In this document: positions 9,339 to 21,994 of the stretch, piece after piece
Layout of the letters: every line of letters starts with the position of its first letter
Position numbering within the stretch: the stretch's first letter is position 1
Source: a virus
Direction: 5' to 3' (one strand)
Virus record (IMG/VR): IMGVR_UViG_3300036790_000048
Location: 1-64,000 of that record
DNA length: 64,000 nt
Notes under the pieces: model-generated
What the model was told of the DNA's origin: nothing
What the model saw: the letters and a program-made list of their open reading frames with translations, nothing else
Database searches by the model: none
Program-made: the position numbers and the translations under genes

Positions 9339-9607
9339 GTCGTCAGCCAGATGTTCTCAGGCGACTCCAGCAGCCGCACCGTGAAGTTACGGATGAACAG
9401 GTGCGGGAACTTCCTTGACCGCTCCCCGAGCCGCTGGTCCCCCCACTGCTTGGCGTCCTCGTAGCCAGTCCCGCCGAACCCCGGCTCCCCGAACGGCCCG
9501 AGCGTGCCCTCATGGCAGGTGCCGAAGCACCGGGCCTGCCGGGTGCCGCGGTCGGTGTGCAGCTGGCACCGGTCGTCCGCGAACTCCAGCGTGACGACAT
9601 ACGCCAT
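9335..9607 (-). CDS. Hypothetical protein, 90 aa
   Basis: The ATG at 9607 has a strong GGAGG 8 nt upstream; a longer in-frame start seven codons earlier lies ahead of this site and is not preferred. The product has three cysteines in its first third and a glycine-rich middle (FGEPGFGGTGYED). It ends inside the radical SAM start (GTGA). It follows the structured intergenic element at 9643-9725. No family is recognised. Confidence 0.65.
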   Translation of the reverse strand: MAYVVTLEFADDRCQLHTDRGTRQARCFGTCHEGTLGPFGEPGFGGTGYEDAKQWGDQRLGERSRKFPHLFIRNFTVRLLESPENIWLTT

Positions 9608-9642
9608 GGTCCCCACCTCCCCCACCATCGTAGATGAAAATA

Positions 9643-9725
9643 CGAGTCCCTGCCGCTACTCTTCCGAGGTCAGTAGCCCGCTCCGGTGGGGGTGGAGCAG
9701 CCTCAGTTTTCACGACAGGGACTCG
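9643..9725 (-). ncRNA. Structured three-way-junction RNA candidate in intergenic region
   Basis: The 164-nt gap between the secreted-protein gene and the 90-aa gene holds a 13-bp closing stem. On the minus-strand RNA, CGAGTCCCTGTCG (9725-9713) pairs with CGGCAGGGACTCG (9655-9643), all Watson-Crick except one G-U wobble; the plus-strand RNA would have a C-A mismatch there. Inside are two hairpins: GCTCC/GGAGC with a 9-nt loop and GCTACT/AGTAGC with an 11-nt loop, the last base shared with the closing stem. TATTTTC follows the 3' side, which might aid termination. It could be a cis-regulator, a processed small RNA or an elaborate terminator. Confidence 0.45.
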
Positions 9726-9771
9726 CCAAGAGCATCAGCGCCCGCCTAGCCCTCGCTTGTAACTATACCCA

Positions 9772-11121
9772 CTACCCGGCGGGCAACGCCGTCGCCTGCG
9801 AGACAGTGGTCGTAACTCCGCCGATAACGTACGTAGCCGTGGTGGCAACGCTGGAGTTATCCGTCGATATCGGGTCCGTGCCGGTGCACCCGAGGTTGAC
9901 CCACGTGGCGATGAACCGGTTGGCCAGCACCAGCGCCAGGCTGTTGCCGATCTGCGCGAAGCTCGGTGCCGGTGACTCGTTCTCAGTCTTGGCGTCAGCC
10001 GCCAGCCGCGGCGCTCCGTTCTGCGCCAGCTCCGTGCACCACGCCGCAGTGTCGTTGTCGTTCAGCGTGAACGGCTCGTCCACCTGCGCCCGGTACAGGT
10101 TGTCCAGCGCCAGGTCCGGGACGCCAGCCGGAGTGAACTGGCCGTTGTTGGTCACGAACTCGTCCAGGCCGGGGATGTCCGCCACCGGGGCAGCCTGCCA
10201 CAGCGTGGCCTGCACCTCCTGCAGCGCGCCGGACGGCAGCGGCCCGGCCCCGGAGACGGTCGGGTCCAGCGTGGGCACCGTCCACTCGCCGCACCCGATC
10301 GACGCCAGCACCGCGTCCAGCAGCTGCTCATCCGACCCGTTGGAGATGCCGGGGTTGTACGCGTAGGTCACCGGCACGTTGTCGGACGGGTCCTGGTCCA
10401 CGATCGAGAAGTCATGCGTCGTCGGGCAGGTCATGCCGTCCGCGGTAGACACGCCAGGGTTGGGCACCGTGACCGTGCCGTTCTCGATATCGGAGTTGAG
10501 CGCGCTGTAGAAGGCGTCGTCATTCGCGTACGACTGCTGCGCGAAGTTGATGAACGATCCAGCCCCAGGCCCTACCAGCTTAAGCACGGTGTCGTTGTAC
10601 CCCACCCAGATGTTGAGCACGTCGTGCGAGCCGAGCTGCGGCACCGGAGCCTTAACCGTGGGCGTGGTGCCAGCATCGATGACCTCCGGGTCGTAGATCG
10701 ACAGCTGGCCAGTCTCCGTGTTCAGGATCGTGGCCTGCACGAACGCCGAGTGCGTGCCGTCAGCCTCCGAGCACTGCTCGCCTGAGCTGCTCAGCTGATA
10801 AGGGGTCGCCAGGCCCTTGGCCGACAGAGGGTTGGCCGGGACGATCAGCGTGCACTGCGGCGCTGTCGTCAGCGGCGCTGTCAGCTGGTAGTCCTCTGTG
10901 GTCTGCGACACAGGGGGATGCACCACTGGCGCGAACTTGCCGTGGTACGTGCCGAAGCCGCGGAAGTCGTGCCGGTAGCCGAACCCGGACGACTGCGGCC
11001 GCCCCTGTCCGCCGTGCTGAGTGGCCGCGAACGCCGCCGCTGGGATCGCCAGCGCGATGACCGCCAGCAATAGGAGTACCCTGCGCCAGCCCAGAGACCG
11101 ACGCCTGCGAGATGATGACAT
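9772..11121 (-). CDS. Secreted protein of unknown function with N-terminal signal peptide
   Basis: 449 residues. A basic n-region (SSSRRRRSLGWRR), hydrophobic core LLLLAVIALAIPAAAFA and an A-x-A type cleavage region around residue 33 predict export. The mature part is soluble, rich in S, T, A and D, with a few cysteines that could form disulfides, and no recognised catalytic motif. AAGGGA lies 6 nt before the ATG. It follows a six-helix MsrQ-like membrane gene, so the two may act together at the envelope. Actinobacterial secreted proteins of this general style exist, so it may be host-derived. Confidence 0.75.
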   Translation of the reverse strand: MSSSRRRRSLGWRRVLLLLAVIALAIPAAAFAATQHGGQGRPQSSGFGYRHDFRGFGTYHGKFAPVVHPPVSQTTEDYQLTAPLTTAPQCTLIVPANPLSAKGLATPYQLSSSGEQCSEADGTHSAFVQATILNTETGQLSIYDPEVIDAGTTPTVKAPVPQLGSHDVLNIWVGYNDTVLKLVGPGAGSFINFAQQSYANDDAFYSALNSDIENGTVTVPNPGVSTADGMTCPTTHDFSIVDQDPSDNVPVTYAYNPGISNGSDEQLLDAVLASIGCGEWTVPTLDPTVSGAGPLPSGALQEVQATLWQAAPVADIPGLDEFVTNNGQFTPAGVPDLALDNLYRAQVDEPFTLNDNDTAAWCTELAQNGAPRLAADAKTENESPAPSFAQIGNSLALVLANRFIATWVNLGCTGTDPISTDNSSVATTATYVIGGVTTTVSQATALPAG

Positions 11122-11277: not shown

Positions 11278-12071
11278 CAGAGGGTGACCGCCCGCGCAAC
11301 CTCGCGCACCTCCTCGCCGCCTATGATCAGCACCCCCACCAGCGCGACTGACCCGATGATCCCGAGCGCCGCCCACCAGCCGCCAGTGGAGTACCCGCCC
11401 GCCCTCCAGTTCTTGATGGACCTGCGCACCCGCGGCCTGCGCAGCAGCACCGCGGGCAATGTGGCCCCGCCATACGCCGCGGTGATGACCCACGCGTGCA
11501 TCGACGCCAGGTGGAGTCCGACGATCGCCCACACGATCCACATGAGGCTGCGCTGCCAGCGTTTCCACTCCGGGCCGAGAGCCTTCTGCGCCACCGCGCT
11601 GGACGTGGCCGCCATGGGCAGGAGCAGGACCACGATCAGCAGCCCGGTCCAGTCCACCGCGCTACCTGCCGCCCGGTCGGCCATCGACGCCGAGGGGTAC
11701 GGCGTCACCGGCGGGTACGCCAGGTGGATGGCCAGCCCGGCCGCGCCGAGCACAAACACCCACAGCCCGTACCACCAGCGCAGCTTGGTGATCTTGAGCC
11801 TGGCCACCGTGATGAACGGCGTGACCGCCAGGCAGGCGATCAAGCACAGCGTGGCATCGAACCCAATCACCGCGTCCGCGTAGTCCAGCAGCCGCCCGGC
11901 GACGATCGGTCTCAGCAGGAACAGCATGGGCACCAGCGGCCACACCCGCAGCGCCGTCCACATCGGCCGGTGGTGAGGGGTCGCCGCGATCTTGAACGCC
12001 GTAGTCACCGGGCCTGCCGGTCTGGCCGGTGCCGCGTGCCTGCCTCGCTGGTTAGCAGCTCGCTGTCCCAC
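11268..12071 (-). CDS. MsrQ/YedZ-like ferric-reductase-type heme membrane protein
   Basis: 267 residues with about six membrane helices. The segment LLLPMAATSSAVAQKALG followed by W-x2-W-Q-R matches the MsrQ/ferric-reductase signature at the loop between helices 4 and 5, and CLAVTPFITVARLK matches the end of helix 2. Possible heme-ligand histidines are in AIHLAY and GLHLASMH. The usual LHR of that loop is WQR here, so one conserved His is missing. MsrQ passes electrons from the quinone pool to the periplasmic methionine-sulfoxide reductase MsrP; no MsrP gene is in the window. Start GTG follows AGG. Likely acquired from a host. Confidence 0.6.
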   Translation of the reverse strand: MGQRAANQRGRHAAPARPAGPVTTAFKIAATPHHRPMWTALRVWPLVPMLFLLRPIVAGRLLDYADAVIGFDATLCLIACLAVTPFITVARLKITKLRWWYGLWVFVLGAAGLAIHLAYPPVTPYPSASMADRAAGSAVDWTGLLIVVLLLPMAATSSAVAQKALGPEWKRWQRSLMWIVWAIVGLHLASMHAWVITAAYGGATLPAVLLRRPRVRRSIKNWRAGGYSTGGWWAALGIIGSVALVGVLIIGGEEVREVARAVTLWGS

Positions 12072-12089
12072 GCGCGTACCTATCGGCAG

Positions 12090-12344
12090 CTAGCCGTTCC
12101 ACGCATTGCGCTCGCGGGCCACCTCGCACGTGATACGCAGCCGGCACTTGTTCTCGGCCATCCGGACTGCTGCGCGCTGCACCTCGACCTCATTGCCGTC
12201 CCGGCGATGGCCGTCGATCTCGCGCTCGTTATTGTCGATCGCCTCGGGATAGATCTTCAGCAGCGACAGCAGCTCCCCAGGCGGGCAAGTACGGCAGTAC
12301 TTGCGGAACTGGTCCTCGCCGTTAGCTGGCGGAGGTGACGCCAC
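12090..12344 (-). CDS. Hypothetical protein, 84 aa
   Basis: A GTG start at 12344 is favoured because it overlaps the end of the SbcC C-lobe gene by 23 nt; an ATG at 12398 would overlap by 77 nt. The product has four cysteines (YCRTC, then NKC and ITC) and is otherwise charged and helical. No family is recognised. Confidence 0.5.
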   Translation of the reverse strand: MASPPPANGEDQFRKYCRTCPPGELLSLLKIYPEAIDNNEREIDGHRRDGNEVEVQRAAVRMAENKCRLRITCEVARERNAWNG

Positions 12345-12954
12345 TGCCGTCCAGCTCCAGCCGCATCCGCGCGTCGGCCGCGTCGTCGTATGCGTCACTG
12401 TGAGTGACTAGCACGATCTGCACACCAGCCTGGTGCGACACCTCGGCCAGGAACTCCGCTAGCCGCGGCTCGTACTCGCGCGAGACGTGGCCGAACGTCT
12501 CGTCAAGGAACAGCACCCGCCGGGCGTGCGGCGTCAGCAGCAGGACCACCAGCCGCACCATGAACCCAGTGACCGCGGCCATGCCCCCGCCGCGAGCGTC
12601 CATGACCGGGGTGTCCACCGCCCGGCCGCCGTACTGGGACCGGATGACGAACTCGGTCACCGCCTGGTTGGCCTTGACCGACTGCTGCACGTGGAAGCTC
12701 AGCTCAGACCCGAAGATGACCTGCAGCCCGCTGGTCACCAGCGTCTCCAGCTGGTCCTGCGCCTGCTTCTGCGCCATCTCCCCGAAGCTGGTCAGCAGCG
12801 CGTTGGCCTGCGTGTGCCGCTCGGTCTCAGCCTGCAAGTCCTGCACCTCGGCCTGCACCCGCATGCCCCGCGCCCCCAGCTCCCGCGCCGCGCCAGCTCG
12901 CCGCTCATAGGAGTACCGCGCCTGCCGCACCCGGTCAGCCAAAAGATCCATCAC
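12322..12954 (-). CDS. SbcC/Rad50 C-terminal ATPase lobe encoded as a separate protein
   Basis: 210 residues. The first ~75 are a helical coiled-coil arm. They are followed by an ABC/SMC-type signature region (DARGGGMAAVTGF, 119-131), Walker B VLFLDET (147-153) with catalytic Glu152, and an H-loop histidine (His185 in VTHSD). There is no Walker A. The missing N-lobe is encoded 4.6 kb away at 17611-18567, so two polypeptides must assemble into one ATPase head. A GTG at 12954 and the adjacent ATG at 12951 are both possible starts. It partners SbcD (16512-17486) in DNA-end processing. Confidence 0.8.
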   Translation of the reverse strand: MMDLLADRVRQARYSYERRAGAARELGARGMRVQAEVQDLQAETERHTQANALLTSFGEMAQKQAQDQLETLVTSGLQVIFGSELSFHVQQSVKANQAVTEFVIRSQYGGRAVDTPVMDARGGGMAAVTGFMVRLVVLLLTPHARRVLFLDETFGHVSREYEPRLAEFLAEVSHQAGVQIVLVTHSDAYDDAADARMRLELDGSGVTSAS

Positions 12955-13138
12955 GGCCCGTCCTCTTCCGCCAGATCAGCCGAGTCAGGTACACCAGCGC
13001 CGCGCGCCGGTGCTGCGGAGTGTCCAGCGGCATGCACTCCGACACCTCGATGTCATTCTCCCGGCACTCGGGGATGACCTTGGCCAGCAGGTCGATCACC
13101 GGCCCGTCCGGCTGGTCCAGGGGTGACCAGTCAGTCAC
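12935..13138 (-). CDS. Hypothetical protein, 67 aa
   Basis: GTG start overlaps the TGA of the cold-shock gene (GTGA) and the end overlaps the SbcC C-lobe gene by 20 nt. The product has a C-terminal basic helix (RRAALVYLTRLIWRKRTGR) that could bind nucleic acid. No domain is recognised. Confidence 0.6.
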   Translation of the reverse strand: MTDWSPLDQPDGPVIDLLAKVIPECRENDIEVSECMPLDTPQHRRAALVYLTRLIWRKRTGRDGSFG

Positions 13139-13476
13139 GACACCCACCCGTGACCCCTGGCCATCTGCAGTAGCGCGCCCTCCCAGTCCGCAGCGCGCAC
13201 CGCAGTGTCCACCTCCGCCATGAACACCTCCGGCGTCAGCACGTCCAGCGCCGGCTGCTGTCGCGCAGCGCCGTCACGCTGGCCGACGATCACATCGCAC
13301 GCCTGCACCCCGCGCTCGGTGGCCCGCTTGCTGAACGTCACCCGCTCGCCGGGCACCAGCTGCTGAGTCCCGCGCGGCAGCTGCTTGGCGTGCACGAACA
13401 CGTCATCCCCGCCCGGCTCCGTGATGAACCCGAACCCGCGGTCCTCCAGCCACGCCTTGACCACTCCCTCCGCCAT
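13135..13476 (-). CDS. Cold-shock domain protein with C-terminal extension
   Basis: 113 residues. Residues 1-65 form a cold-shock OB fold: GVVKAW, then RNP1-like RGFGFI and RNP2-like VFVHA, the aromatic face that binds single-stranded RNA or DNA. An extra ~45-residue C-terminal helix region is absent from ordinary 67-70 aa Csp proteins. The ATG at 13476 is chosen because GGAGGGG precedes it and the domain starts there; upstream sequence in frame is low-complexity and inside dnaN. Expected roles are RNA chaperone or single-strand binding. Confidence 0.88.
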   Translation of the reverse strand: MAEGVVKAWLEDRGFGFITEPGGDDVFVHAKQLPRGTQQLVPGERVTFSKRATERGVQACDVIVGQRDGAARQQPALDVLTPEVFMAEVDTAVRAADWEGALLQMARGHGWVS

Positions 13477-13484
13477 TACCCCTC

Positions 13485-14657
13485 CTACTCCAGCAGCACC
13501 GGTGGCAGCTGCCCGATCACGCCCGCCGTCTGGGCCTTGTCGTCGCGCAGCACCAGCGGGCTCCTGCGCTTGCCTGCGTCGGCGGCGAGGTGCAGCGACA
13601 CCTGCGGCCCCGCCGTCAGCCCCAGCAAGTCCTCCAGGTGCTCGTGGTTGACCACGATCATCCGTTCCTTGGACGTCCATTGCGCCGGGATCTCCTCAGA
13701 CGCCGCGTTGTGGTTCTTGTCCCGGCTGACCAGCGTCATCTTGCCGGGGGCCAGGCGCAGCCCGATGGCCGCGCTCTCCGGATCAGCCGTGATGCGCACC
13801 CGGTGGATGGCCGACACCAGGTCCCCCTTGTCCACCGACACGACCTGGCCGTTCTCGGTCATCGGCCCGCGCAACAGGCGCTTCTCCATGTCCGGGAACT
13901 CGCCCGCCATCTTCCCGGCCATGAACACGTCGTTGCCGATCCGGAACGCGAGGACGTACTTCTCCTCCCCCAGGCCGATCTCCTCGGCCTGGCAGTCGGC
14001 CAGCAGCCGGATCAGCCCGTCCACCGCGCCGACCGGGACCTGCATGTCCACCGGGAACCCGGCGATCGTCGCCTTGTGCAGGCGCACGTGCGACGACGCG
14101 ATGACCCGGCCGTCGCTGATGCTGATCGCCATCAGCTTGGGGTTGGTGCCGTCCCTGCTGGCCGCGTTCTTGACCAGCGACAGCGCCGTCAGCAGCTTCC
14201 CGCGGCTCACCGAGGTGAACTCCATGGAGTGCGCGTCGGGCAGTGGCGGGTAGTCGTCAGCCGGCTGGAGCATGAGGTCCCACGACGCGTGGCCAGCGGT
14301 GATGTGGGCCGACCCGCGGACGATCCGCACCTCCAAGTCGCCCTCGCCCGCCTCGTGCAGGATCTTGAGGAACCGGTGCGCCGGTAGCAGCACGGTGCCG
14401 CTCCCGATGCAGGTCACCAGCGTGGACTCCGACAGGACGCTCAGCTCCATATCGGTGGCCGCCACCCGCAGGCTGCCGTCCCCGATCACGACCTGGAAGT
14501 TGGACAGCAGCGGGTAGATGTTCTTGCCCGGCACCACCGACGCCGCCCGCTCCGTGAGCTGCTGCAAGTGGAACCGCTTGGCCGTGAACCCGATCTCCGC
14601 CTTGCCCGCGAACGACAGCTGCCGGGCGTCCTCCGCCAGCTGGTCGCCGTCAGCCAT
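13485..14657 (-). CDS. dnaN: DNA polymerase III beta sliding clamp
   Basis: 390 residues, close to the usual ~370-400 of bacterial beta clamps, with the three repeated clamp folds. Recognisable pieces are LQQLTERAASVVPGKNIYPLL near the start, LRVAATDMELSV (first-domain strand), PADDYPPLPD, and repeated hydrophobic strands through to GQLPPVLLE. It should form a ring on DNA that tethers polymerase and repair enzymes and be loaded by the DnaX/delta/delta' proteins encoded here. The ATG at 14657 is chosen over a longer open frame because it overlaps the 58-aa upstream gene; the extra 34 residues are low-complexity. Confidence 0.9.
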   Translation of the reverse strand: MADGDQLAEDARQLSFAGKAEIGFTAKRFHLQQLTERAASVVPGKNIYPLLSNFQVVIGDGSLRVAATDMELSVLSESTLVTCIGSGTVLLPAHRFLKILHEAGEGDLEVRIVRGSAHITAGHASWDLMLQPADDYPPLPDAHSMEFTSVSRGKLLTALSLVKNAASRDGTNPKLMAISISDGRVIASSHVRLHKATIAGFPVDMQVPVGAVDGLIRLLADCQAEEIGLGEEKYVLAFRIGNDVFMAGKMAGEFPDMEKRLLRGPMTENGQVVSVDKGDLVSAIHRVRITADPESAAIGLRLAPGKMTLVSRDKNHNAASEEIPAQWTSKERMIVVNHEHLEDLLGLTAGPQVSLHLAADAGKRRSPLVLRDDKAQTAGVIGQLPPVLLE

Positions 14658-14826
14658 GCAGCGCGTCCTCGATGTGGGACGCCAGACACGGCCCGACGTC
14701 CAGGCTGCGGTCGGACACCAGCTCGTCCATGTCGTTACACCCGTAGTCGCTGAAGTCAAACGACCGGATGGCCGCCAGGATCTTCTTGCCGTCCTGAGAC
14801 AGCCCCTTCTCCGTGCTGGTGCTCAC
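14650..14826 (-). CDS. Hypothetical protein, 58 aa
   Basis: Acidic, helical protein (KKILAAIRSFDFSDYG, then DELVSDRSLD) with a GTG start overlapping the upstream TGA (GTGA), preceded by GGTGGGA, and ending 8 nt inside dnaN. Translational coupling with dnaN suggests a replication link. No family is recognised. Confidence 0.65.
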   Translation of the reverse strand: MSTSTEKGLSQDGKKILAAIRSFDFSDYGCNDMDELVSDRSLDVGPCLASHIEDALHG

Positions 14827-15074
14827 AATCCCACCGCCCTCAGCGCCGTGTCTACCGCCGCCGTCTCGTGCTCGATCGCCTGGTTCACGTCCTCCAGCAG
14901 CTTGGCCGCCTGCGCGGGCGAGTCCGCGCCGAACTCCGCCTTGAGCGCCGCGTCCGCCTCGGCCAGGTCCTTCTGCGCCTGCTCCCGGGCGTACGCAGCC
15001 TGGTCGCGGGCGCGGTTGGCCTGCTCCACCCGCGCCCGCAGCCGGGCCACCGTCGCCGCCATGTCCTCAGCCAT
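14823..15074 (-). CDS. Coiled-coil protein, possibly a detached SbcC arm
   Basis: 83 residues, almost entirely helical and rich in A, E, Q and R (VARLRARVEQANRARDQ), with FGADSPAQAAKLLEDVN following. The spacing of an F-G-x-x-S-P-x-x-A turn between two coils resembles the arm region after the zinc hook in SbcC/Rad50. As both SbcC lobes are encoded separately nearby, this could be a third fragment, but it could equally be an independent coiled-coil protein. A GGAGGGTGGG stretch precedes the ATG. Confidence 0.7.
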   Translation of the reverse strand: MAEDMAATVARLRARVEQANRARDQAAYAREQAQKDLAEADAALKAEFGADSPAQAAKLLEDVNQAIEHETAAVDTALRAVGL

Positions 15075-15140
15075 TCATCCCACCCACCCTCCACGAAGCC
15101 CATTGGCATCGCGATACATACCTTCAGGCACGAGGTTCAC
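15075..15140 (-). CDS. Candidate 21-residue microprotein
   Basis: In the spacer upstream of the 83-aa gene, AAAGGAGG stands 9 nt before a GTG that opens a 22-codon frame ending TGA immediately before the next ATG (TGAATG). The ribosome site is among the best in the window. The peptide is glycine- and aromatic-rich (MYRDANGLRGGW). It could be a leader that couples translation to the downstream gene rather than a functional protein. Confidence 0.4.
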   Translation of the reverse strand: MNLVPEGMYRDANGLRGGWVG

Positions 15141-15155
15141 TGGGCATCACCTCCT

Positions 15156-16013
15156 TTAGAACAACCGCACACTATTGCTGGTACCGGGAGCAGGAGCGTA
15201 CTTCACACAGGCGTGCCTCACCTCGCAGTACCCGCAGCCCGTGCTATCCGCTTTTGGGGAGTAGTCCTGACGCAGGATGTCATGCGCGGTGCGCTCGATC
15301 CGCGTGTGCATCTCGGCCCGGTCGTGCTCGGTGGGCTGCCAGGACATAAACTGCTGGCTCTCCACCATGGGCTGTATCAGCCCGGCCAGGGTGAGCGGCT
15401 GGCCGAACATGCACTCGCACGTCACGTCGTAGAACGCCAGCTGCGCCTTGGTTTTCCGCCAGTACTGGTCGTCCTTGGTCACCTTCAGGTCCCAGACCCC
15501 GTAGTGGCCGGTGGACGGCTCGCGCACCAGGAGGTCCATCTCGCCGTTCAGCAGGATCTTGACCGGCGGGCCGCCCGCCGTCAGTGGAGAGATCATCATG
15601 GGCGTCTTGAACCGCACCGCGGGCTGGTACTCGTACGGCAGCACGAACTTGGTCAGGAACTTCTCCAGCCGGTCAGCGCACACCGTGCAGAACGCCCGCA
15701 CGTTCTCCCGGTCCTGGCGGTGCTTCCACCGCACCACCCCGTCGCCCTCTTCTATGACCTGCCGCTCGATCTCGTCCATGATCATGACGACGTGGGCCAC
15801 CATCCACCCAGGCGGAGGCGGGTCCATGCTCAGCCACCGGCGCATCGCCTGGTCCACGACATTGCCCTGGAAGAACACGCGCACGTCCGTGACCGGGCTT
15901 TTCATCCCCTCTGACGTCAGGTACGACTTCTGCTTGCACTCCTCGCTGGTCCTGATCTTCGACCAGCTGACCTTGACGAGCCGCGTCTCCTCATCGTAAT
16001 GACTCACGTACAC
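15156..16013 (-). CDS. PD-(D/E)XK nuclease of RecB/Cas4-like type with Fe-S cysteines
   Basis: 285 residues. The nuclease core has GEMDLLV with Asp160 and WDLKVT with Asp175 and Lys177, the D...D-x-K pattern of this superfamily, followed by QLAFYDV, a typical helix of RecB-like nucleases. Cys26 plus a C-terminal trio (C260, C263, C269 in CGYCEVRHAC) matches the four-cysteine iron-sulfur pin of AddB/Cas4-type enzymes. It lies directly after the SbcC N-lobe, SbcD and HAD genes, suggesting DNA-end resection or recombination. There is no CRISPR array, so a Cas4 adaptation role is not implied. Confidence 0.82.
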   Translation of the reverse strand: MYVSHYDEETRLVKVSWSKIRTSEECKQKSYLTSEGMKSPVTDVRVFFQGNVVDQAMRRWLSMDPPPPGWMVAHVVMIMDEIERQVIEEGDGVVRWKHRQDRENVRAFCTVCADRLEKFLTKFVLPYEYQPAVRFKTPMMISPLTAGGPPVKILLNGEMDLLVREPSTGHYGVWDLKVTKDDQYWRKTKAQLAFYDVTCECMFGQPLTLAGLIQPMVESQQFMSWQPTEHDRAEMHTRIERTAHDILRQDYSPKADSTGCGYCEVRHACVKYAPAPGTSNSVRLF

Positions 16014-16525
16014 CCAGCCCGGTACACCTTGGCCGCGGCCAGCTCAGGCGGATAGCACGGGTTGAGCACCAGGACCGGGACGTCGGTCAGGTCGCGGATC
16101 ATCTGCGCCGTCTCCGGCCAGTCCTCCACGAACAGCACGACCTCCTTGCCCTGGTCGCGCAGGTCCCAGATCCAGCGAGCCTTCATGCACGCGTTGGCGG
16201 ACGGCGGAAACTCGGCGTTGCTGCGCGGCTTCATCAGCAGGCAGTCCACCGGCAGCTCCAGCCGCGCGAACTGCGCCTCCACGATGTCCCGCGCGCTGTC
16301 ATCCGCCCCTGTCATCACGTACTGCAAGTGGTGAGGGGCCAGCAGCTTCATTAGGCTTACCGCCCCCTCGATTGGCTCATCTTCCCCGCACGCGAGCGCG
16401 TAATCCTCCCAGGTCAGCTCGCCTGCCTTGATCTTGGGCACCAGGTGCTGGCGCTTCATGGTGGACACCAAGGTGCTGTCCTTGTCCCACGCCACCACCG
16501 TGCGCAGGTTCTCACGATCGCTCAT
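16004..16525 (-). CDS. HAD-superfamily phosphatase
   Basis: 173 residues. VVAWDKDSTL near residue 9 is a DxDxT-type nucleophile motif; later MTGADDS (motif II region) and LFVEDWPETAQM (motif IV acidic residues) fit a small HAD enzyme, as in polynucleotide 3'-phosphatases and phage 5'/3'-nucleotidases. Being next to SbcD and a PD-(D/E)XK nuclease, clean-up of DNA termini is a reasonable guess, not shown. The ATG at 16525 is preferred; an upstream start would add 12 residues deep in sbcD. Confidence 0.72.
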   Translation of the reverse strand: MSDRENLRTVVAWDKDSTLVSTMKRQHLVPKIKAGELTWEDYALACGEDEPIEGAVSLMKLLAPHHLQYVMTGADDSARDIVEAQFARLELPVDCLLMKPRSNAEFPPSANACMKARWIWDLRDQGKEVVLFVEDWPETAQMIRDLTDVPVLVLNPCYPPELAAAKVYRAGCT

Positions 16526-17486
16526 TGTGCACCGCCCAGTCCAGTAGCTCCGACACCTCATCCTCGACGCCCTTGTCCACGCCGAGGCTGCGCACGTGCG
16601 CGATCACCGACTCAGCGTCCACCAGGGCGAACTTAGCCCCGCCGACGCTGGCCAGGAAGTCGTCCAGCTTGCCCGCGGCGTCCGTGACCTCCTGCTTCTC
16701 CCGTAGCCGGAACACCTGGTCCGCCGGCTTGGCCTTGGTCAGCGGCACCTCGGTGAACGACCCGTCCATGCTGTCCCACACCGCGACCTTGATCTGCCGA
16801 GTGAGGTTGTGCTCGTGCAGGCTGCCGCGGCTGAGCGCGCCGTAGTTGGCGAACCGCACCCCGGCCGCCTCCCACACCTCGTGCGCCTCGTGCACATGCC
16901 CGTAGTAGCAGCTGCCGCGGTTGCCCATCGCGCTGGCGAACATCACCGCGTCGTAGTTCTCGTACAGCAGCTCAAAGCCAGGCGGGTACAGCGGCGCGTG
17001 CGCCACCACCAGCTGATGCGCGCCACTGCCCGCGAACTCGTCCTCGCGGAAGTGCCGCAGCGCCTCCCCGACGTGCTCGTTATCCCAGGTCTGCTGCCAC
17101 GGCACCCCGTAGAGCTGCTGGGGAAACTCCCGGCACCGGCCGAGCAGCGCCCGCGCGCCAGCCGCAAACAGCACGCCCAGCGGCTGCGTCGCCCAGATCG
17201 AGTCCAGCCGGTCATGCTGGATGTCATGGTTGCCGGGCACGATGTACCAGGGCCGGTTATACGCCTGGCCGACGCGGATCACCTTCTGCACCAGCCGGTG
17301 GCTGTTGCGCCCCGGTGCCTTGGAGTGGAACACGTCCCCCGCCCACACCACCGCAGTGACCTGGTACTGCTCGGCCACCGCCACCGTCTCGCCCAGCAGG
17401 TCCAGCAGGTCGTCCGTGTACGAGTCGGTGCAACTCGACGGCGGCTTATCGGAGACGTGGATATCCCCGAAAGTCAGTACCCTCAC
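16512..17486 (-). CDS. sbcD: SbcD/Mre11-type nuclease subunit
   Basis: 324 residues of calcineurin-like metallophosphoesterase. The five motifs are visible: GDIH (7-10), GDVFHSK (50-56), PGNHD (84-88), VAHAPL with His163, and YGHVH (195-199), giving the two-manganese site. A C-terminal ~100-residue region would be the capping and SbcC-binding part. SbcD cuts DNA ends and hairpins with its SbcC ATPase, which here is split. GTG start has GGGAGGGTG upstream and overlaps the stop of a 43-aa membrane gene. Confidence 0.92.
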   Translation of the reverse strand: MRVLTFGDIHVSDKPPSSCTDSYTDDLLDLLGETVAVAEQYQVTAVVWAGDVFHSKAPGRNSHRLVQKVIRVGQAYNRPWYIVPGNHDIQHDRLDSIWATQPLGVLFAAGARALLGRCREFPQQLYGVPWQQTWDNEHVGEALRHFREDEFAGSGAHQLVVAHAPLYPPGFELLYENYDAVMFASAMGNRGSCYYGHVHEAHEVWEAAGVRFANYGALSRGSLHEHNLTRQIKVAVWDSMDGSFTEVPLTKAKPADQVFRLREKQEVTDAAGKLDDFLASVGGAKFALVDAESVIAHVRSLGVDKGVEDEVSELLDWAVHNERS

Positions 17487-17614
17487 CAGCTCACCCTCCC
17501 GTAGACAATCAGTTGCAGCAGCAGGTACACCGCGCTGAACGCCAGCATCAGCAGCGCGGCACGCCACAGCGTGTCCCACGCGCCGAGGAGGAAGCCGACG
17601 ATGTAGTGCCTCAC
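17483..17614 (-). CDS. Single-pass membrane microprotein between split sbcC and sbcD
   Basis: 43 residues, dominated by the hydrophobic run AALLMLAFSAVYLLLQLIV with short polar ends. Its GTG overlaps the TGA of the SbcC N-lobe gene and its TGA overlaps the GTG of sbcD, so all three are coupled. Such a protein between the two subunits of a DNA-repair nuclease is unexpected; it could tether the complex to the membrane or be an unrelated insertion. Confidence 0.7.
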   Translation of the reverse strand: MRHYIVGFLLGAWDTLWRAALLMLAFSAVYLLLQLIVYGRVSW

Positions 17615-18567
17615 TGGTGTCCGTGCTCCTTTAGCACAGGCTGCCCGCACTCCGGGCACACGCCCCACTGGGCCGAGTACTCATCCAGCTGCCGAGCCAC
17701 CTCAGCCGCCTGCTCCGCCTCAGCCTTCTCAGCCAGTATTGCCATTTGCGACACGCGCTCCCGCTGGGCCTGCGCGCCGAGCAGGAACTCCAGCCGGTCA
17801 CGCCGAGCCACGAACTCCTCCAGCAGCTCCAGCGACGGCGGCTCGCCCACCACGCGCACCTGCTGCACGCTGCGCTCGGTCTGCTCGCGGAACGCCAGCC
17901 ACTGCTGCAGCCGGTCGCGCCGCTGCTCCAGCTCCGCTATGCGCGCCATCGACGCCTCCGCCGCCTCGACCGCCTCCCGCTCGGCCGGTAGCGTGGCGTA
18001 CTGCGCCGCCTGCTCCTGCAAGTCCGCCAGGTCCGTCATCCGGATGGTCAGCTCGCCCGACGATCGCAGCCGCCTCCGGTTGGCCTCCTGCGCCGCCCGG
18101 TACAGCAGCGTAACGTTGGTCAGCCTGCCCAGGACGCGCGCCACCTCGCTGCCGGTGGAATCCAGCAGGTACGGCCGGTCGAACTGCGACGCGAAGTTGA
18201 CCTCGCCCAGCTGCATCACCTGAGACACTGCCTCGGGCACCTTGCCCGCCAGCTTGGTGTATGTCTTCTGGTGGACCCCAACGCCTAGCTGGTAGTCGTT
18301 CTTGCCGCCGCGGTGGATCGTCGCCACCCACCGGTCATCGTCCATGCCGGTGCGCTCGATCTCGTCCCCCGACGCCGACACCATGCACGTCTTCTCGCCG
18401 TTGGTGATGTAGCTGGTGCCCTTGTCGTTGAACGCCAGCAGCCGGACCGACCGGAACAGGCCTGACTTGCCTGATCCGGTCGCCCCGGTGACCACCGTGA
18501 ACCACCCCAGCCTGACCGTCAGCTTGCGCAGCGACTGGTAGTTCTCCACCACGATCTCACGCAGCAC
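17611..18567 (-). CDS. sbcC: SbcC/Rad50 N-terminal ATPase lobe with coiled coil and zinc hook
   Basis: 318 residues. It starts LREIVVENYQSLRKLTVRL, typical of SbcC/RecF-type ATPases, with Walker A GATGSGKS at 28-35. Residues ~165-300 form a long coiled coil, and CPECGQ (304-309) near the C-terminus is a CxxC zinc hook. The protein ends 9 residues later with no signature, Walker B or D-loop; those are on the separate 12322-12954 gene. It is therefore the front half of a Rad50-like protein rather than a truncated pseudogene. GTG start with GGAGG 10 nt upstream. Confidence 0.85.
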   Translation of the reverse strand: MLREIVVENYQSLRKLTVRLGWFTVVTGATGSGKSGLFRSVRLLAFNDKGTSYITNGEKTCMVSASGDEIERTGMDDDRWVATIHRGGKNDYQLGVGVHQKTYTKLAGKVPEAVSQVMQLGEVNFASQFDRPYLLDSTGSEVARVLGRLTNVTLLYRAAQEANRRRLRSSGELTIRMTDLADLQEQAAQYATLPAEREAVEAAEASMARIAELEQRRDRLQQWLAFREQTERSVQQVRVVGEPPSLELLEEFVARRDRLEFLLGAQAQRERVSQMAILAEKAEAEQAAEVARQLDEYSAQWGVCPECGQPVLKEHGHQ

Positions 18568-18568
18568 G

Positions 18569-19150
18569 TCAGATCGCCTCCACCGCGAACAGCTGCCCGT
18601 CCGCGCGCTGCACGACCGCCCTGCCCGCCTTGTCCTTGGCCCCCGGCAGGTCCGCGTACGTCTGCGGCTTGCCCGGCGTGTCTGGCTTGCCAGGCGTCGC
18701 AGGCTTTACCGGGACCACCGGCTTGCCAGGCGTCGCAGGCTTGGACGGCCTGCCCGGCACCGGAGGCTTGGACGGCTTCGGCCTGATACCCACCCCCCGC
18801 CCAGGATGGTAGATGTAGACGCCACGCCGCGCCCGGTCCACGTCCGTTCGCAGGGCCACGAAGTCCCGCAGCACCCCGGCCACCTGCTGCCCGCTCAGGC
18901 CGGTCCCGGTCGCCACATCCGCTACCGTGAGCTGCTTGCGCGGGTGCTGCTGCAGGTACGCCGCCACCTGGAAGGTCAGGCGCTCCGTGGGGTTGCCGTA
19001 GCCGACCGCCGACAGCGCGTCCCTGGTCAGCTGGTCCAGCTCGGCCTCAGTCGTCGTGCGCGGCTGCCCGACCGCCGGTAGCTCCTGCACCGTGAACTCG
19101 TTCTGGCCCGGCTCCATGGCGGTCCCGTTGACCGCTACGTCCACGGTCAT
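18569..19150 (-). CDS. Winged-helix protein with proline-rich PGKP repeat tail
   Basis: 193 residues in three parts. Residues ~38-115 are helical with LTVADVATGTGLSGQQVAGV, a winged-helix DNA-binding motif, then RRGVYIYHPG as the wing. Residues ~122-165 are a string of PGKP-type units (PVPGRPSKPATPGKPVVPVK), likely extended and disordered. The C-terminal ~30 residues are globular. The gene overlaps its upstream neighbour (ATGA) and sits 1 nt before sbcC. A DNA-binding regulator or tethering factor is plausible. Confidence 0.65.
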   Translation of the reverse strand: MTVDVAVNGTAMEPGQNEFTVQELPAVGQPRTTTEAELDQLTRDALSAVGYGNPTERLTFQVAAYLQQHPRKQLTVADVATGTGLSGQQVAGVLRDFVALRTDVDRARRGVYIYHPGRGVGIRPKPSKPPVPGRPSKPATPGKPVVPVKPATPGKPDTPGKPQTYADLPGAKDKAGRAVVQRADGQLFAVEAI

Positions 19151-19476
19151 GCGTCGTCCTTCGGCTCGTGCTTCCTGGCGCTGACGTTGCGCAGGAACAG
19201 GTCAGCCTTCTCCGACGACGTGAGCGCCCCGCCCTCTTCGATCAGGTAGCCCGGCTCGTACTTGTAGCGCCGGCTCGCCTTGACGAAGCCGTGGAAGTCG
19301 CGCTCCTTGGTGATCTCGGTTCCGCAGAACCGGCAGGTGAACACCACCTCGTACCCGCCGCCCGGGGCCACGAACACCTCAGGCGTACTGCGCGGGCTGT
19401 GATTGCCCACCAGCACGCGGCACGTCACGTACTGGGGCGGCAGGTTGTTGAGCTGGTTCCGACGATTCCTTGCCAT
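19147..19476 (-). CDS. Hypothetical protein, 109 aa
   Basis: Basic N-terminus (MARNRRNQLNNLPPQY), one CRFC pair plus Cys19, and a charged C-terminus. A partial zinc site is possible. GGTGGG lies upstream of the ATG. No family is recognised. Confidence 0.6.
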   Translation of the reverse strand: MARNRRNQLNNLPPQYVTCRVLVGNHSPRSTPEVFVAPGGGYEVVFTCRFCGTEITKERDFHGFVKASRRYKYEPGYLIEEGGALTSSEKADLFLRNVSARKHEPKDDA

Positions 19477-19479
19477 TTG

Positions 19480-19692
19480 TTATCCCACCTTGGTAGCTAA
19501 TCCGGCCTCGGTGTAGCTAGTCCACCCAGGCCATGTCTCCTGTTGCCTGTGCCCGCACGCCGGGCACGTCATCTCTTCTACCGGTGCACCGTCCAGGTCC
19601 TGCATGTCATCGGCCGCGTCCACCTGCCAGAGGCCGTCGTAGGCCACGCCGCACTTGGCGCAGTCCACGTTGGCCAGCAGGACGACGCTCAC
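19480..19692 (-). CDS. Zinc-ribbon protein, 70 aa
   Basis: CAKCGVAYDGLW (C11, C14) and CPACGHRQ (C43, C46) form a complete four-cysteine zinc ribbon, spaced as in ribbon domains of transcription and RNA-processing factors. GTG start overlaps the stop of the DUF932-like gene. The larger open frame extending upstream is low-complexity and antiparallel to that gene, so it is not used. Confidence 0.75.
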   Translation of the reverse strand: MSVVLLANVDCAKCGVAYDGLWQVDAADDMQDLDGAPVEEMTCPACGHRQQETWPGWTSYTEAGLATKVG

Positions 19693-20855
19693 TCCTCGGG
19701 CTTGATCCGGCGGCACGACGCGCAGCGCAGGCTGGCGCTGTGAGCCACGTGCCCGCCGACGCGCATCAGCTTGTCCACCGAGGAGTCGCTCAGCTCGCTG
19801 TCGTTGGCCGCGGCGGTGATGGCGTTCAGGACCGTATACATGGACAGCTCGCCGCCGACGTCGGCCATGTACCTGATGACCTCCTGCCGCAGCTTGGCGG
19901 GGACGCTGTGCTGCCGGAACAGGTCGTCCAGCACCAGGTTGACGTCCTGCTCGACCGGGATCTCCGTGGCCGCCTGCACGCCCTCCAGGGACTGCTCCAG
20001 GCCGCCGAGCACATTGTCTACCGCCGCCTGCGCCCAGGCGTACACGTCGTCGTCCTCGTAACCCCCAGCGCGCCGGTTGAACTGCCCGGATGTGACCAGC
20101 GTGTCGGTCATGCCGTTGGTGCACCGCCACCGGAACAGGTAGCCGTCCACGCTGACCGGCTTCAGGCCGAGCTGGCTGTTGCGCCACTGCACCCCGACCG
20201 ACCACATGTCGGACGGGTCCGCCGTGCCGGGGCCGCGGACGTTGCGGACGTGGCCGGGCACGACCAGCCGCCCGTGCGTCAGCTCCAGCGAGTGGGTGAA
20301 CTTGTAGTCGAGCAGCACCTCATCCGCCGACCACGCCGGGTAGTGCGACTTGATGCCCTGCACCAGCTCGTCCAGCAGCCGCAGGTTGCTGAACGGCCGG
20401 ATGGTGCCGGACCCGAACGCCACCACCACCGGCACGCTGTCCGGCCCGGCCTCGCCGCGGACAAACCCCTTGAACTCGCGTCCCTCCCACCCGCTGTTGC
20501 CGCCGAACCACCAGTTGAGCTGCTGCTCCAGCAGGTGTGACGGCGTGCGCTCCTGCAGCTTGCGCGGGATGCCGACCTTGGCCCCGGCCTCCAGCAGGGA
20601 GTCCTTGGTCAGCTGGTACTCGTCGCCGTTCGGGTAGAGGCGGACGAACGCGTTCATGGTGTCCGACCCGCGGGCCGTCTCCGACACCTTGTCCCAGTCC
20701 GGGTCGATCCGGAACACGACGCCCGACTGCGCCTCGAACTTGAAGTCCTGCAGCGGCTCGGTGGCGGACAGCTTCTCCCGCGCCTGGTCGAGCGTCAGCA
20801 GTCGGGGCCGCATCTCGTCTATGGACGGGTCCATGATGTCCGTCTGAGCAGTCAC
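19689..20855 (-). CDS. DUF932-like phage/plasmid protein
   Basis: 388 residues. The middle has [13 protein letters not shown] and later [12 protein letters not shown], which match the conserved NS-x-x-G and C-T-N-G-M blocks of DUF932 proteins found in phages and plasmids next to recombination genes. The C-terminus adds a CASC pair. Biochemical role is unknown. GTG start overlaps the recA stop (GTGA), so it is translated with RecA; a link with strand exchange or single-strand DNA handling is inferred from context only. Confidence 0.68.
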
Positions 20856-21994
20856 TTAGCGCCTCCAGGTGCCAGTAGGTCTGAGATCGATCCTTGCGGT
20901 ACCAGCGCCGCCGGGTCAACAGCCGGAGCCGACCGCACCGGGCTGGGCGGCGAGGGAGCCTGGCCCAGGCCAGTCGTGGCCATGCGCTCGGTGATGCGCC
21001 GCTCCAAGTCGTCCAGGTACTCGTCCGCGCACACCGCCAGCGCCGCGCGAGACTTGTCCTTACCCTGGCCCAGGCTATGCCCGTCCACCGAGTAGAACGC
21101 GCCCGACTTGACGATGATCCCGAACTCCACACCGAGGTCCAGCAGCTGCGCCGCACGGCTGAACCCGAGTCCGTAGATGATGTCCGCCTCGGCCTGCCGG
21201 AACGGAGGGGCCAGCTTGTTCTTGACCACCTTGATGCGCACCCGCTGCCCGATCGCCGTGGTGCCGTCCTTCAGCGACTCGATCTTGCGCACGTCCAGCC
21301 GCACCGACGCGTAGAACTTCAGCGCCTTGCCGCCAGTGGTCACCTCAGGGTTGCCGTAGAAGACGCCGATCTTCTCACGCAGCTGGTTGATGAATATGCA
21401 CGTGGTCCGCGTCTTGCTCAGCGACCCAGTGATCTTGCGCAGCGCCTGGGACATTAGCCGCGCCTGCAAGCCAGGGTGACTGTCCCCCATGTCGCCCTCA
21501 ATCTCAGCCCGCGGCACCAGCGCCGCCACCGAGTCGATGACGATGATGTCCACCACGCCCGACCGCGCGCACATGTCCGCGATCTCGAGGCCCTGCTCCC
21601 CCGTGTCCGGCTGGGACAGCAGGAAGTTGTGCTCGGTGTCCACGCCGAGAGCGCGTGCGTAATCGGGGTCGAGAGCGTGCTCGGCGTCGATCATCACCAC
21701 GACGCCCGGCGTGCCGTTCGCCCGCGCCAGCCGCTGCGCGCTCGCGATGGCATGCAGAGCCAGGGTGGTCTTCCCGCTCATCTCCGGGCCGTAGATCTCC
21801 ACCACGCGCCCGCGAGGCAGCCCGCCGATGCCCAGCGCCACGTCCAGCGCCGTGCACCCGGTAGGGATCACCTCCACCGGCACCTCCACCGACACGCTCA
21901 TATCCATGAGCGCCCCGGTGCCGAACTGCTGGTTGACGCCGCCCAGCAGCGCCTGCACCGGGTCGTCTGGCGCTGCCGCCTTAGCCTTAGCCAT
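20852..21994 (-). CDS. recA: RecA recombinase
   Basis: 380 residues, bacterial-type length and architecture. Walker A is GPEMSGKT (69-76; GPESSGKT is usual). Then [44 protein letters not shown] (Walker B and loop 1), [22 protein letters not shown] (loop 2), and a long C-terminal domain ending in an acidic/proline tail. It should form ATP-dependent filaments on ssDNA for recombination-dependent replication. Much closer to bacterial RecA than to T4 UvsX-type proteins, so host acquisition is likely. Confidence 0.97.

What the first reader, a model, noticed from the sequence alone, without database searches (positions are those of the whole stretch)
12322..18567. SbcC/Rad50 ATPase split into two genes 4.6 kb apart
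The N-lobe gene (17611-18567) holds Walker A, coiled coil and zinc hook CPEC and then stops. The C-lobe gene (12322-12954) holds a coil, the signature, Walker B and H-loop and has no Walker A. SbcD, a phosphatase, a nuclease and dnaN lie between. Both halves have intact motifs and ribosome/stop coupling, so they look functional, not decayed. Rad50/SbcC and T4 gp46 are normally single chains; here two subunits must form one head, perhaps allowing separate control.
Basis: partly seen in the sequence, partly recalled or inferred. Interest (0 to 1): 0.88.

Follow-up and report, generated by a model that had tools for sequence, protein, structure and literature searches.

The report
Phage DNA-repair ATPase split in pieces
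In this virus of bacteria, a DNA-break-processing machine that is normally one long protein (Rad50/SbcC) is made as two separate half-proteins, probably with a small third piece, and the same split is kept in at least 23 other very different phages and prophages, so it is a working design and not a broken gene.

Summary
The N-lobe gene (17611-18567, minus) carries Walker A, Q-loop, a coiled arm and CPEC 11 residues before its stop. The C-lobe gene (12322-12954, minus) carries a coil, Walker B and H-loop and no Walker A. The 139.6-kb virus record shows no other SbcC. Both profiles hit Rad50 best among solved structures (E about 1e-11), including P. furiosus Rad50 crystals made as two chains.

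The split is an old, conserved state: 24 phages or prophages (actinophage-like, Bacillales, cyanophage, acidobacterial, 266-536 kb phages) encode both halves separately, 0.25-107 kb apart. None was found fused. SbcD is present in all 18 checked whole records that hold both halves. N and C trees each place split forms apart from fused SbcC, consistent with one fission.

Corrections and additions: (1) the signature is not canonical; LSGG[E/Q] is replaced by a conserved x-GG[GA]-hydrophobic. (2) The cut lies at the zinc-hook apex: CxxC sits 3-14 residues from the N-chain end in 19 of 21. (3) A small coiled-coil protein (14823-15074) travels with the module as a likely third piece. (4) 'Separate control' is unsupported here: the genes form one overlapping run.

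No description found in the open-access library. New variant of a known kind.

The parts
17611..18567 (-). N-chain of split SbcC/Rad50: Walker A lobe, Q-loop, coiled arm, terminal zinc-hook-type CPEC (residues 304-307 of 318)
   Evidence: ORF; PHROG 16465 1e-24; PDB Rad50 9e-12 with family profile; AF2 pLDDT 75, Foldseek to Rad50/SMC N-lobe chains
12322..12954 (-). C-chain of split SbcC/Rad50: coil, variant signature RGGGM, Walker B, H-loop (start GTG 12954 or ATG 12951)
   Evidence: ORF; PHROG 15167 1e-33; PDB Rad50 9e-12 with family profile; AF2 pLDDT 91, Foldseek to Rad50/SMC C-lobe chains
14823..15074 (-). M-chain: 83-aa coiled-coil protein, probable third component of the split arm
   Evidence: Same small gene beside N, C or dnaN in actinophage-like, Bacillales, cyanophage, acidobacterial and 266-536-kb phages; reciprocal profile searches between lineages rank it first
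16512..17486 (-). SbcD/Mre11-like nuclease (start GTG 17486, overlaps the ORF before it)
   Evidence: Metallophos 6e-11; found in 19 of 19 records that hold the C-chain
15156..16013 (-). PD-(D/E)XK (Cas4/RecB-like) nuclease, syntenic with the split SbcC genes
   Evidence: PDDEXK_1 1e-13; same position in most actinophage-like loci and in the 266-536-kb phages
13485..14657 (-). DnaN-like sliding clamp, between M and C genes
   Evidence: DNA_pol3_beta 3e-15; M gene directly before it in most actinophage-like loci and in LR745208, G021, G026
16004..16525 (-). HAD-type phosphatase, polynucleotide-kinase-phosphatase-like
   Evidence: PHROG 415 3e-17; present in 6 loci
17483..17614 (-). 43-aa transmembrane-like ORF overlapping N stop (GTGA) and SbcD start (GTGA)
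   Evidence: sequence; conservation not tested
20852..21994 (-). RecA, upstream in the same cluster (also next to N in the 266-536-kb phages)
   Evidence: RecA 2e-120; synteny

Best explanation
This is a natural split form of the SbcC/Rad50 ATPase that works with SbcD on DNA ends during phage replication and recombination. Inferred mechanism: the N-chain (Walker A lobe plus arm ending in the CxxC hook) and the C-chain (signature/Walker B lobe with a short coil) pair to rebuild one ABC head. Two such heads engage with ATP, hold SbcD at the arm roots, and control nuclease access to DNA ends. The cut lies at the hook apex, so the ascending and descending arm strands are separate polypeptides; a small coil protein (M-chain) probably supplies part of the missing descending strand or clasps the arm. 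Shown here: both halves, their Rad50 affinity, the motif distribution, co-occurrence with SbcD, a gene neighbourhood with RecA, a PD-(D/E)XK nuclease and a sliding clamp that is conserved in many of the phages, and co-inheritance. Inferred: physical assembly, ATPase activity, role in resection, and the role of M.
For: Complementary motifs, none duplicated. Both profiles hit Rad50 best in PDB; models match separate N- and C-lobe chains of Rad50 and SMC heads. 24 phages or prophages with both halves separate, none found fused; C-only records are all fragments of about 95 kb or less. SbcD in 19 of 19 checked records. Same gene order RecA-N-SbcD-PDDEXK-M-DnaN-C in the window and in 266-536-kb phages at about 25% identity. 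N and C distance matrices correlate, r = 0.93. Split forms group apart from fused ones in both trees (90% and 84% of bootstrap trees). CxxC is 3-14 residues from the N-chain end in 19 of 21, but central in fused proteins (T4 gp46 about 288 of 560; E. coli about 506 of 1048).
Against: No interface between the chains was modelled or measured. Signature Ser is replaced by Gly and the following Glu/Gln by a hydrophobic residue in all 21 C-chains; mutating the signature in human RAD50 abolishes DNA binding (review PMC4494100), so the ATP cycle may differ. Hook-less N-chains (Magritte, G016, G004) show the hook is dispensable in one clade. Tree support is moderate and fused sampling is thin (8 rows).
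Confidence: 0.88

Rival explanations
1. The two halves are remnants of a broken SbcC gene (insertion, rearrangement or assembly error) and no longer work.
For: A single ancestral chain is the norm; mobile genes occur in the gap in some relatives (AP2/HNH-type gene directly after N in BboS-125 and Brevibacillus).
Against: The same two-gene state with intact frames and conserved motifs recurs in 24 genomes, with pairwise identities down to 14% (N) and 19% (C); assembly error cannot recur so.
Confidence: 0.02
2. N and C chains do not form one head; each acts alone or with another partner (for example the C-chain as a clamp-associated factor, the N-chain as a DNA-binding arm).
For: In several phages the genes are 30-107 kb apart; the signature is non-canonical in the whole family.
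Against: ABC heads need both lobes; the halves always co-occur in the larger records, with SbcD; no second N or C lobe in any record; distance correlation 0.93.
Confidence: 0.08
3. The halves are joined after transcription or translation (trans-splicing intein or split intron) into one SbcC chain.
For: Split inteins and introns are known in phage genes (own knowledge).
Against: The N-chain ends 3-14 residues after CxxC and the C-chain begins with a coil, leaving no room for intein halves; no Rfam intron in 11500-20000.
Confidence: 0.02

Closest known systems
SbcC-SbcD / Rad50-Mre11 (E. coli SbcCD, archaeal and eukaryotic MR)
   Same: ABC head with Walker A lobe, coiled arm, CxxC hook, Walker B lobe; SbcD partner encoded in the same genome, usually close by
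   Different: One chain there, two (probably three) here; arm much shorter; variant signature; hook at a chain end
T4 gp46-gp47
   Same: Phage version, similar total size (gp46 560 aa; N+M+C here 611 aa), clamp gene nearby
   Different: gp46 is a single chain with a central CxxC
PHROG 16465 'exonuclease' and PHROG 15167 'ATPase' (e.g. Bacillus phage vB_BboS-125 gp32 and gp35)
   Same: These families are the N- and C-chains; all tested members match
   Different: Listed as two unconnected families; I found no statement that they are halves of one ATPase, and the SbcD gene next to them in BboS-125 is not annotated
Two-chain P. furiosus Rad50 catalytic-domain constructs (PDB 1f2t, 1ii8, 3qkr)
   Same: N and C lobes as separate chains forming one head
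   Different: Laboratory truncation with little or no arm; here natural
Mre11-Rad50 fusions (Mimivirus R555; PMC3175470)
   Same: Unusual gene architecture of the same complex in viruses
   Different: Fusion of partners rather than fission of Rad50
Split polymerases in jumbo phages (split Pol III alpha and split RNAP; PMC7824862)
   Same: A phage enzyme encoded as separate, distant pieces
   Different: Different enzyme; in the passages found, that survey describes SbcC without any split form

Membership tests
SbcC/Rad50 | N-terminal Walker A lobe of Rad50 type | tested here: met
   GATGSGKS; family profile vs PDB Rad50 9e-12; Q-loop Gln aligned in 20 of 21. Pfam AAA_23 only below cut-off (17.4 vs 27 bits)
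SbcC/Rad50 | C-terminal lobe with Walker B and H-loop | tested here: met
   DE of Walker B and His of the H-loop in all 21; profile vs PDB Rad50 9e-12
SbcC/Rad50 | ABC signature LSGG[E/Q] | tested here: not met
   x-GG[GA]-hydrophobic instead (GHGA in Mvi-JY20); Ser absent in all 21, with register fixed by the downstream conserved Arg
SbcC/Rad50 | Central CxxC zinc hook | tested here: inconclusive
   CxxC present in 19 of 21 N-chains but at the chain end; zinc binding not testable
SbcC/Rad50 | SbcD/Mre11 partner encoded | tested here: met
   19 of 19 records
SbcC/Rad50 | Single polypeptide carrying both lobes | tested here: not met
   Separate genes in all 24 genomes with both halves
SbcC/Rad50 | ATP-dependent head engagement and DNA-end nuclease activity | not testable with these tools
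   needs biochemistry
SMC proteins | Hinge domain between the arms | tested here: not met
   No hinge; N-chain ends at CxxC; sequence hits to SMC are weaker than to Rad50, although Foldseek ranks B. subtilis SMC heads first alongside Rad50

The most novel reading that the evidence does not exclude
A three-chain SbcC: N-chain, M-coil and C-chain form an arm open at its apex, with a hook that no covalent link joins to the descending coil and a modified signature, coupled to the phage's sliding clamp and PD-(D/E)XK nuclease. This would be an MR-type machine whose arms can be opened or exchanged, unlike any known Rad50.
Probability: 0.35. Interest if true: 0.82.

Novelty: new variant of a known kind. 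Interest (0 to 1): 0.64.

Why it matters
How much of Rad50's function needs one continuous arm (signalling between hook and head) is an open question. Nature has kept a form with the arm cut at the hook, in phages of at least four bacterial phyla, so it can be tested directly: what can an MR complex do when hook and descending coil are not covalently linked? It also names two PHROG families (16465, 15167) as halves of one enzyme and points to a small new partner protein.

Tried and rejected
Looked for fused relatives. PHROG 1499 and its members (488-520 aa, L080-L082) are single-chain mini-SbcC proteins, not another split. N-lobe scan of viral contigs with the window protein alone gave nothing; two-sequence profiles worked. 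Genome-contig scan with the actinophage profile found nothing; a second with BboS-125 gp35 found four Bacillales loci. The idea that M plus the C-chain coil equals the N-chain arm in length (60+83 vs about 148 residues) fits the window but not longer N-chains (450-485 aa), so length matching is not used as evidence. A lead that Bacillus phage 0305phi8-36 lacks one SbcC lobe (PMC3175470) could not be followed: record not held. Intron/intein explanation rejected. Separate regulation in the window: no promoter-like site, uninformative. Coevolution between chains not attempted: too few pairs.

Full report
Observation. The N-chain has 318 residues: Walker A GATGSGKS, Q-loop FASQFD, helical arm, CPEC at 304-307, then 11 residues and the stop. 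The C-chain has 210: a coil, RGGGM, VLFLDE, VTHS, and neither Walker A nor CxxC. The gap is 4,656 bp. Between them lie SbcD, a polynucleotide-kinase-type phosphatase, a PD-(D/E)XK nuclease, an 83-aa coil protein, a DnaN-like clamp, a cold-shock-like protein and small ORFs.

What they are. With profiles of five or six family members, the best PDB sequence matches are Rad50 for both halves (9e-12 each). The best C hits are chains B of P. furiosus Rad50 crystals in which the lobes are separate chains. AlphaFold2 gave a good C model (pLDDT 91) and a fair N model (75, pTM 0.40, three arm helices 153-189, 193-237, 246-301). Foldseek placed them on Rad50 and SMC C-lobe and N-lobe chains. The single-chain N model is weak around 122-139.

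No complete SbcC elsewhere. In the 139.6-kb virus record the N-chain, the C profile, PHROG 77 (SbcC) and Pfam AAA_23 find only these two genes. The limit: PHROG 77 and AAA_23 detect even the N-chain only weakly, and the record may be incomplete.

The split is conserved. Records with separate N and C genes: this window; Microbacterium phage Magritte; Bacillus phage vB_BboS-125; uncultured 485-kb phage LR745208; Microcystis phage Mvi-JY20; Tunturiibacter phage Tunturi_5; 13 further IMG/VR records (including one of 536 kb) and a 266-kb one; and four Bacillales genomes, by their neighbours likely prophages (Sutcliffiella, two Paenibacillus, Brevibacillus). That is 24. Spacing runs from 0.25 kb (Paenibacillus) to 107 kb, and in Tunturi_5 the genes lie on opposite strands. 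Records with C but no N are all fragments of about 95 kb or less. I found no fused form. Isolates with it are few: about five among 50,697 phage records at the sensitivity of tblastn. SbcD was present in all 19 checked records. Trees of the N lobes and of the C lobes each put the 21 split forms together and apart from eight fused ones (90% and 84% of bootstrap trees). Both recover several of the same inner groups, and distances correlate at 0.93 (not corrected for shared phylogeny). The simplest reading is one old fission followed by spread among phages. Fused sampling was small, so this is not settled.

Where the cut is. In 19 of 21 N-chains a CxxC motif lies 3-14 residues from the end; no C-chain has one. 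In fused proteins with a CxxC it is central. The cut is therefore at the hook apex. Magritte and G016 (and, by its end sequence, G004) have another tail instead of the hook.

A third piece. A 75-97-aa coiled-coil gene is between N and C in Bacillales and Mvi-JY20, right after N in Tunturi_5, and between the PD-(D/E)XK nuclease and DnaN in actinophage-like and 266-536-kb phages. A profile from actinophage-like members ranks the five Bacillales ones first of 822 ORFs (3.5e-5 to 1.7e-3). The reverse search ranks actinophage-like ones first of 1,369 (best 6e-6) and finds the 266-kb and 485-kb phage members (1.6e-6, 9e-4). The Tunturi_5 and Mvi-JY20 members rest on position and type, not on score. 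I propose it as part of the complex. It stays with DnaN when N and C have moved away, so a clamp-linked role is also possible.

What is unusual in the head. The signature LSGG[E/Q] is x-GG[GA]-hydrophobic (GHGA in Mvi-JY20). The register is fixed by a conserved Arg 12 residues on that aligns with Rad50. The D-loop Asp is kept in the Mvi-JY20 and 266-536-kb groups but is Ser in the others. These are fixed family traits, not decay, but they mean the ATP cycle should not be assumed identical to Rad50's.

Literature. Full-text searches of the open-access library found no split SbcC or Rad50. A survey of 224 jumbo phages calls SbcC-SbcD nearly universal and describes split polymerases but, in the passages found, no split SbcC (PMC7824862). 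Fusions of Mre11 with Rad50 are known (PMC3175470). Subscription papers and preprints were not searchable, so novelty is provisional.

Verdict. A real, conserved split SbcC/Rad50, not a curiosity of one genome; the mechanism is strong by analogy and untested by experiment.

Noticed in passing
L004 (NC_048735.1) 9103-10218: Bacillus phage vB_BboS-125 carries an unannotated SbcD gene just after its C-chain gene; the record leaves most of the stretch blank.
   Followed up: partly
L004 7398-7970 and L077 9062-9601: An AP2/HNH-type (homing-endonuclease-like) gene sits directly after the N-chain stop in BboS-125 and Brevibacillus but not in Sutcliffiella or Paenibacillus; a mobile gene at the hook position could have caused the original fission.
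   Followed up: no
window 18569-19150: Gene before the N-chain joins a MarR-like winged helix (weak match) to collagen-like PGKP repeats.
   Followed up: no
window 17483-17614: 43-aa transmembrane-like ORF overlapping both the N-chain stop and the SbcD start by GTGA.
   Followed up: no
L002, L037, L038: One group (Magritte, G016, G004) has no hook CxxC and carries a different C-terminal tail; in it the N and C genes lie 33-94 kb from each other.
   Followed up: partly
L005 11992-13359, L094 13802-15028: Longer N-chains (400-485 aa) have repeated 45-55-residue helix units with an LP/VP turn, suggesting a segmented arm and not one plain coiled coil.
   Followed up: no
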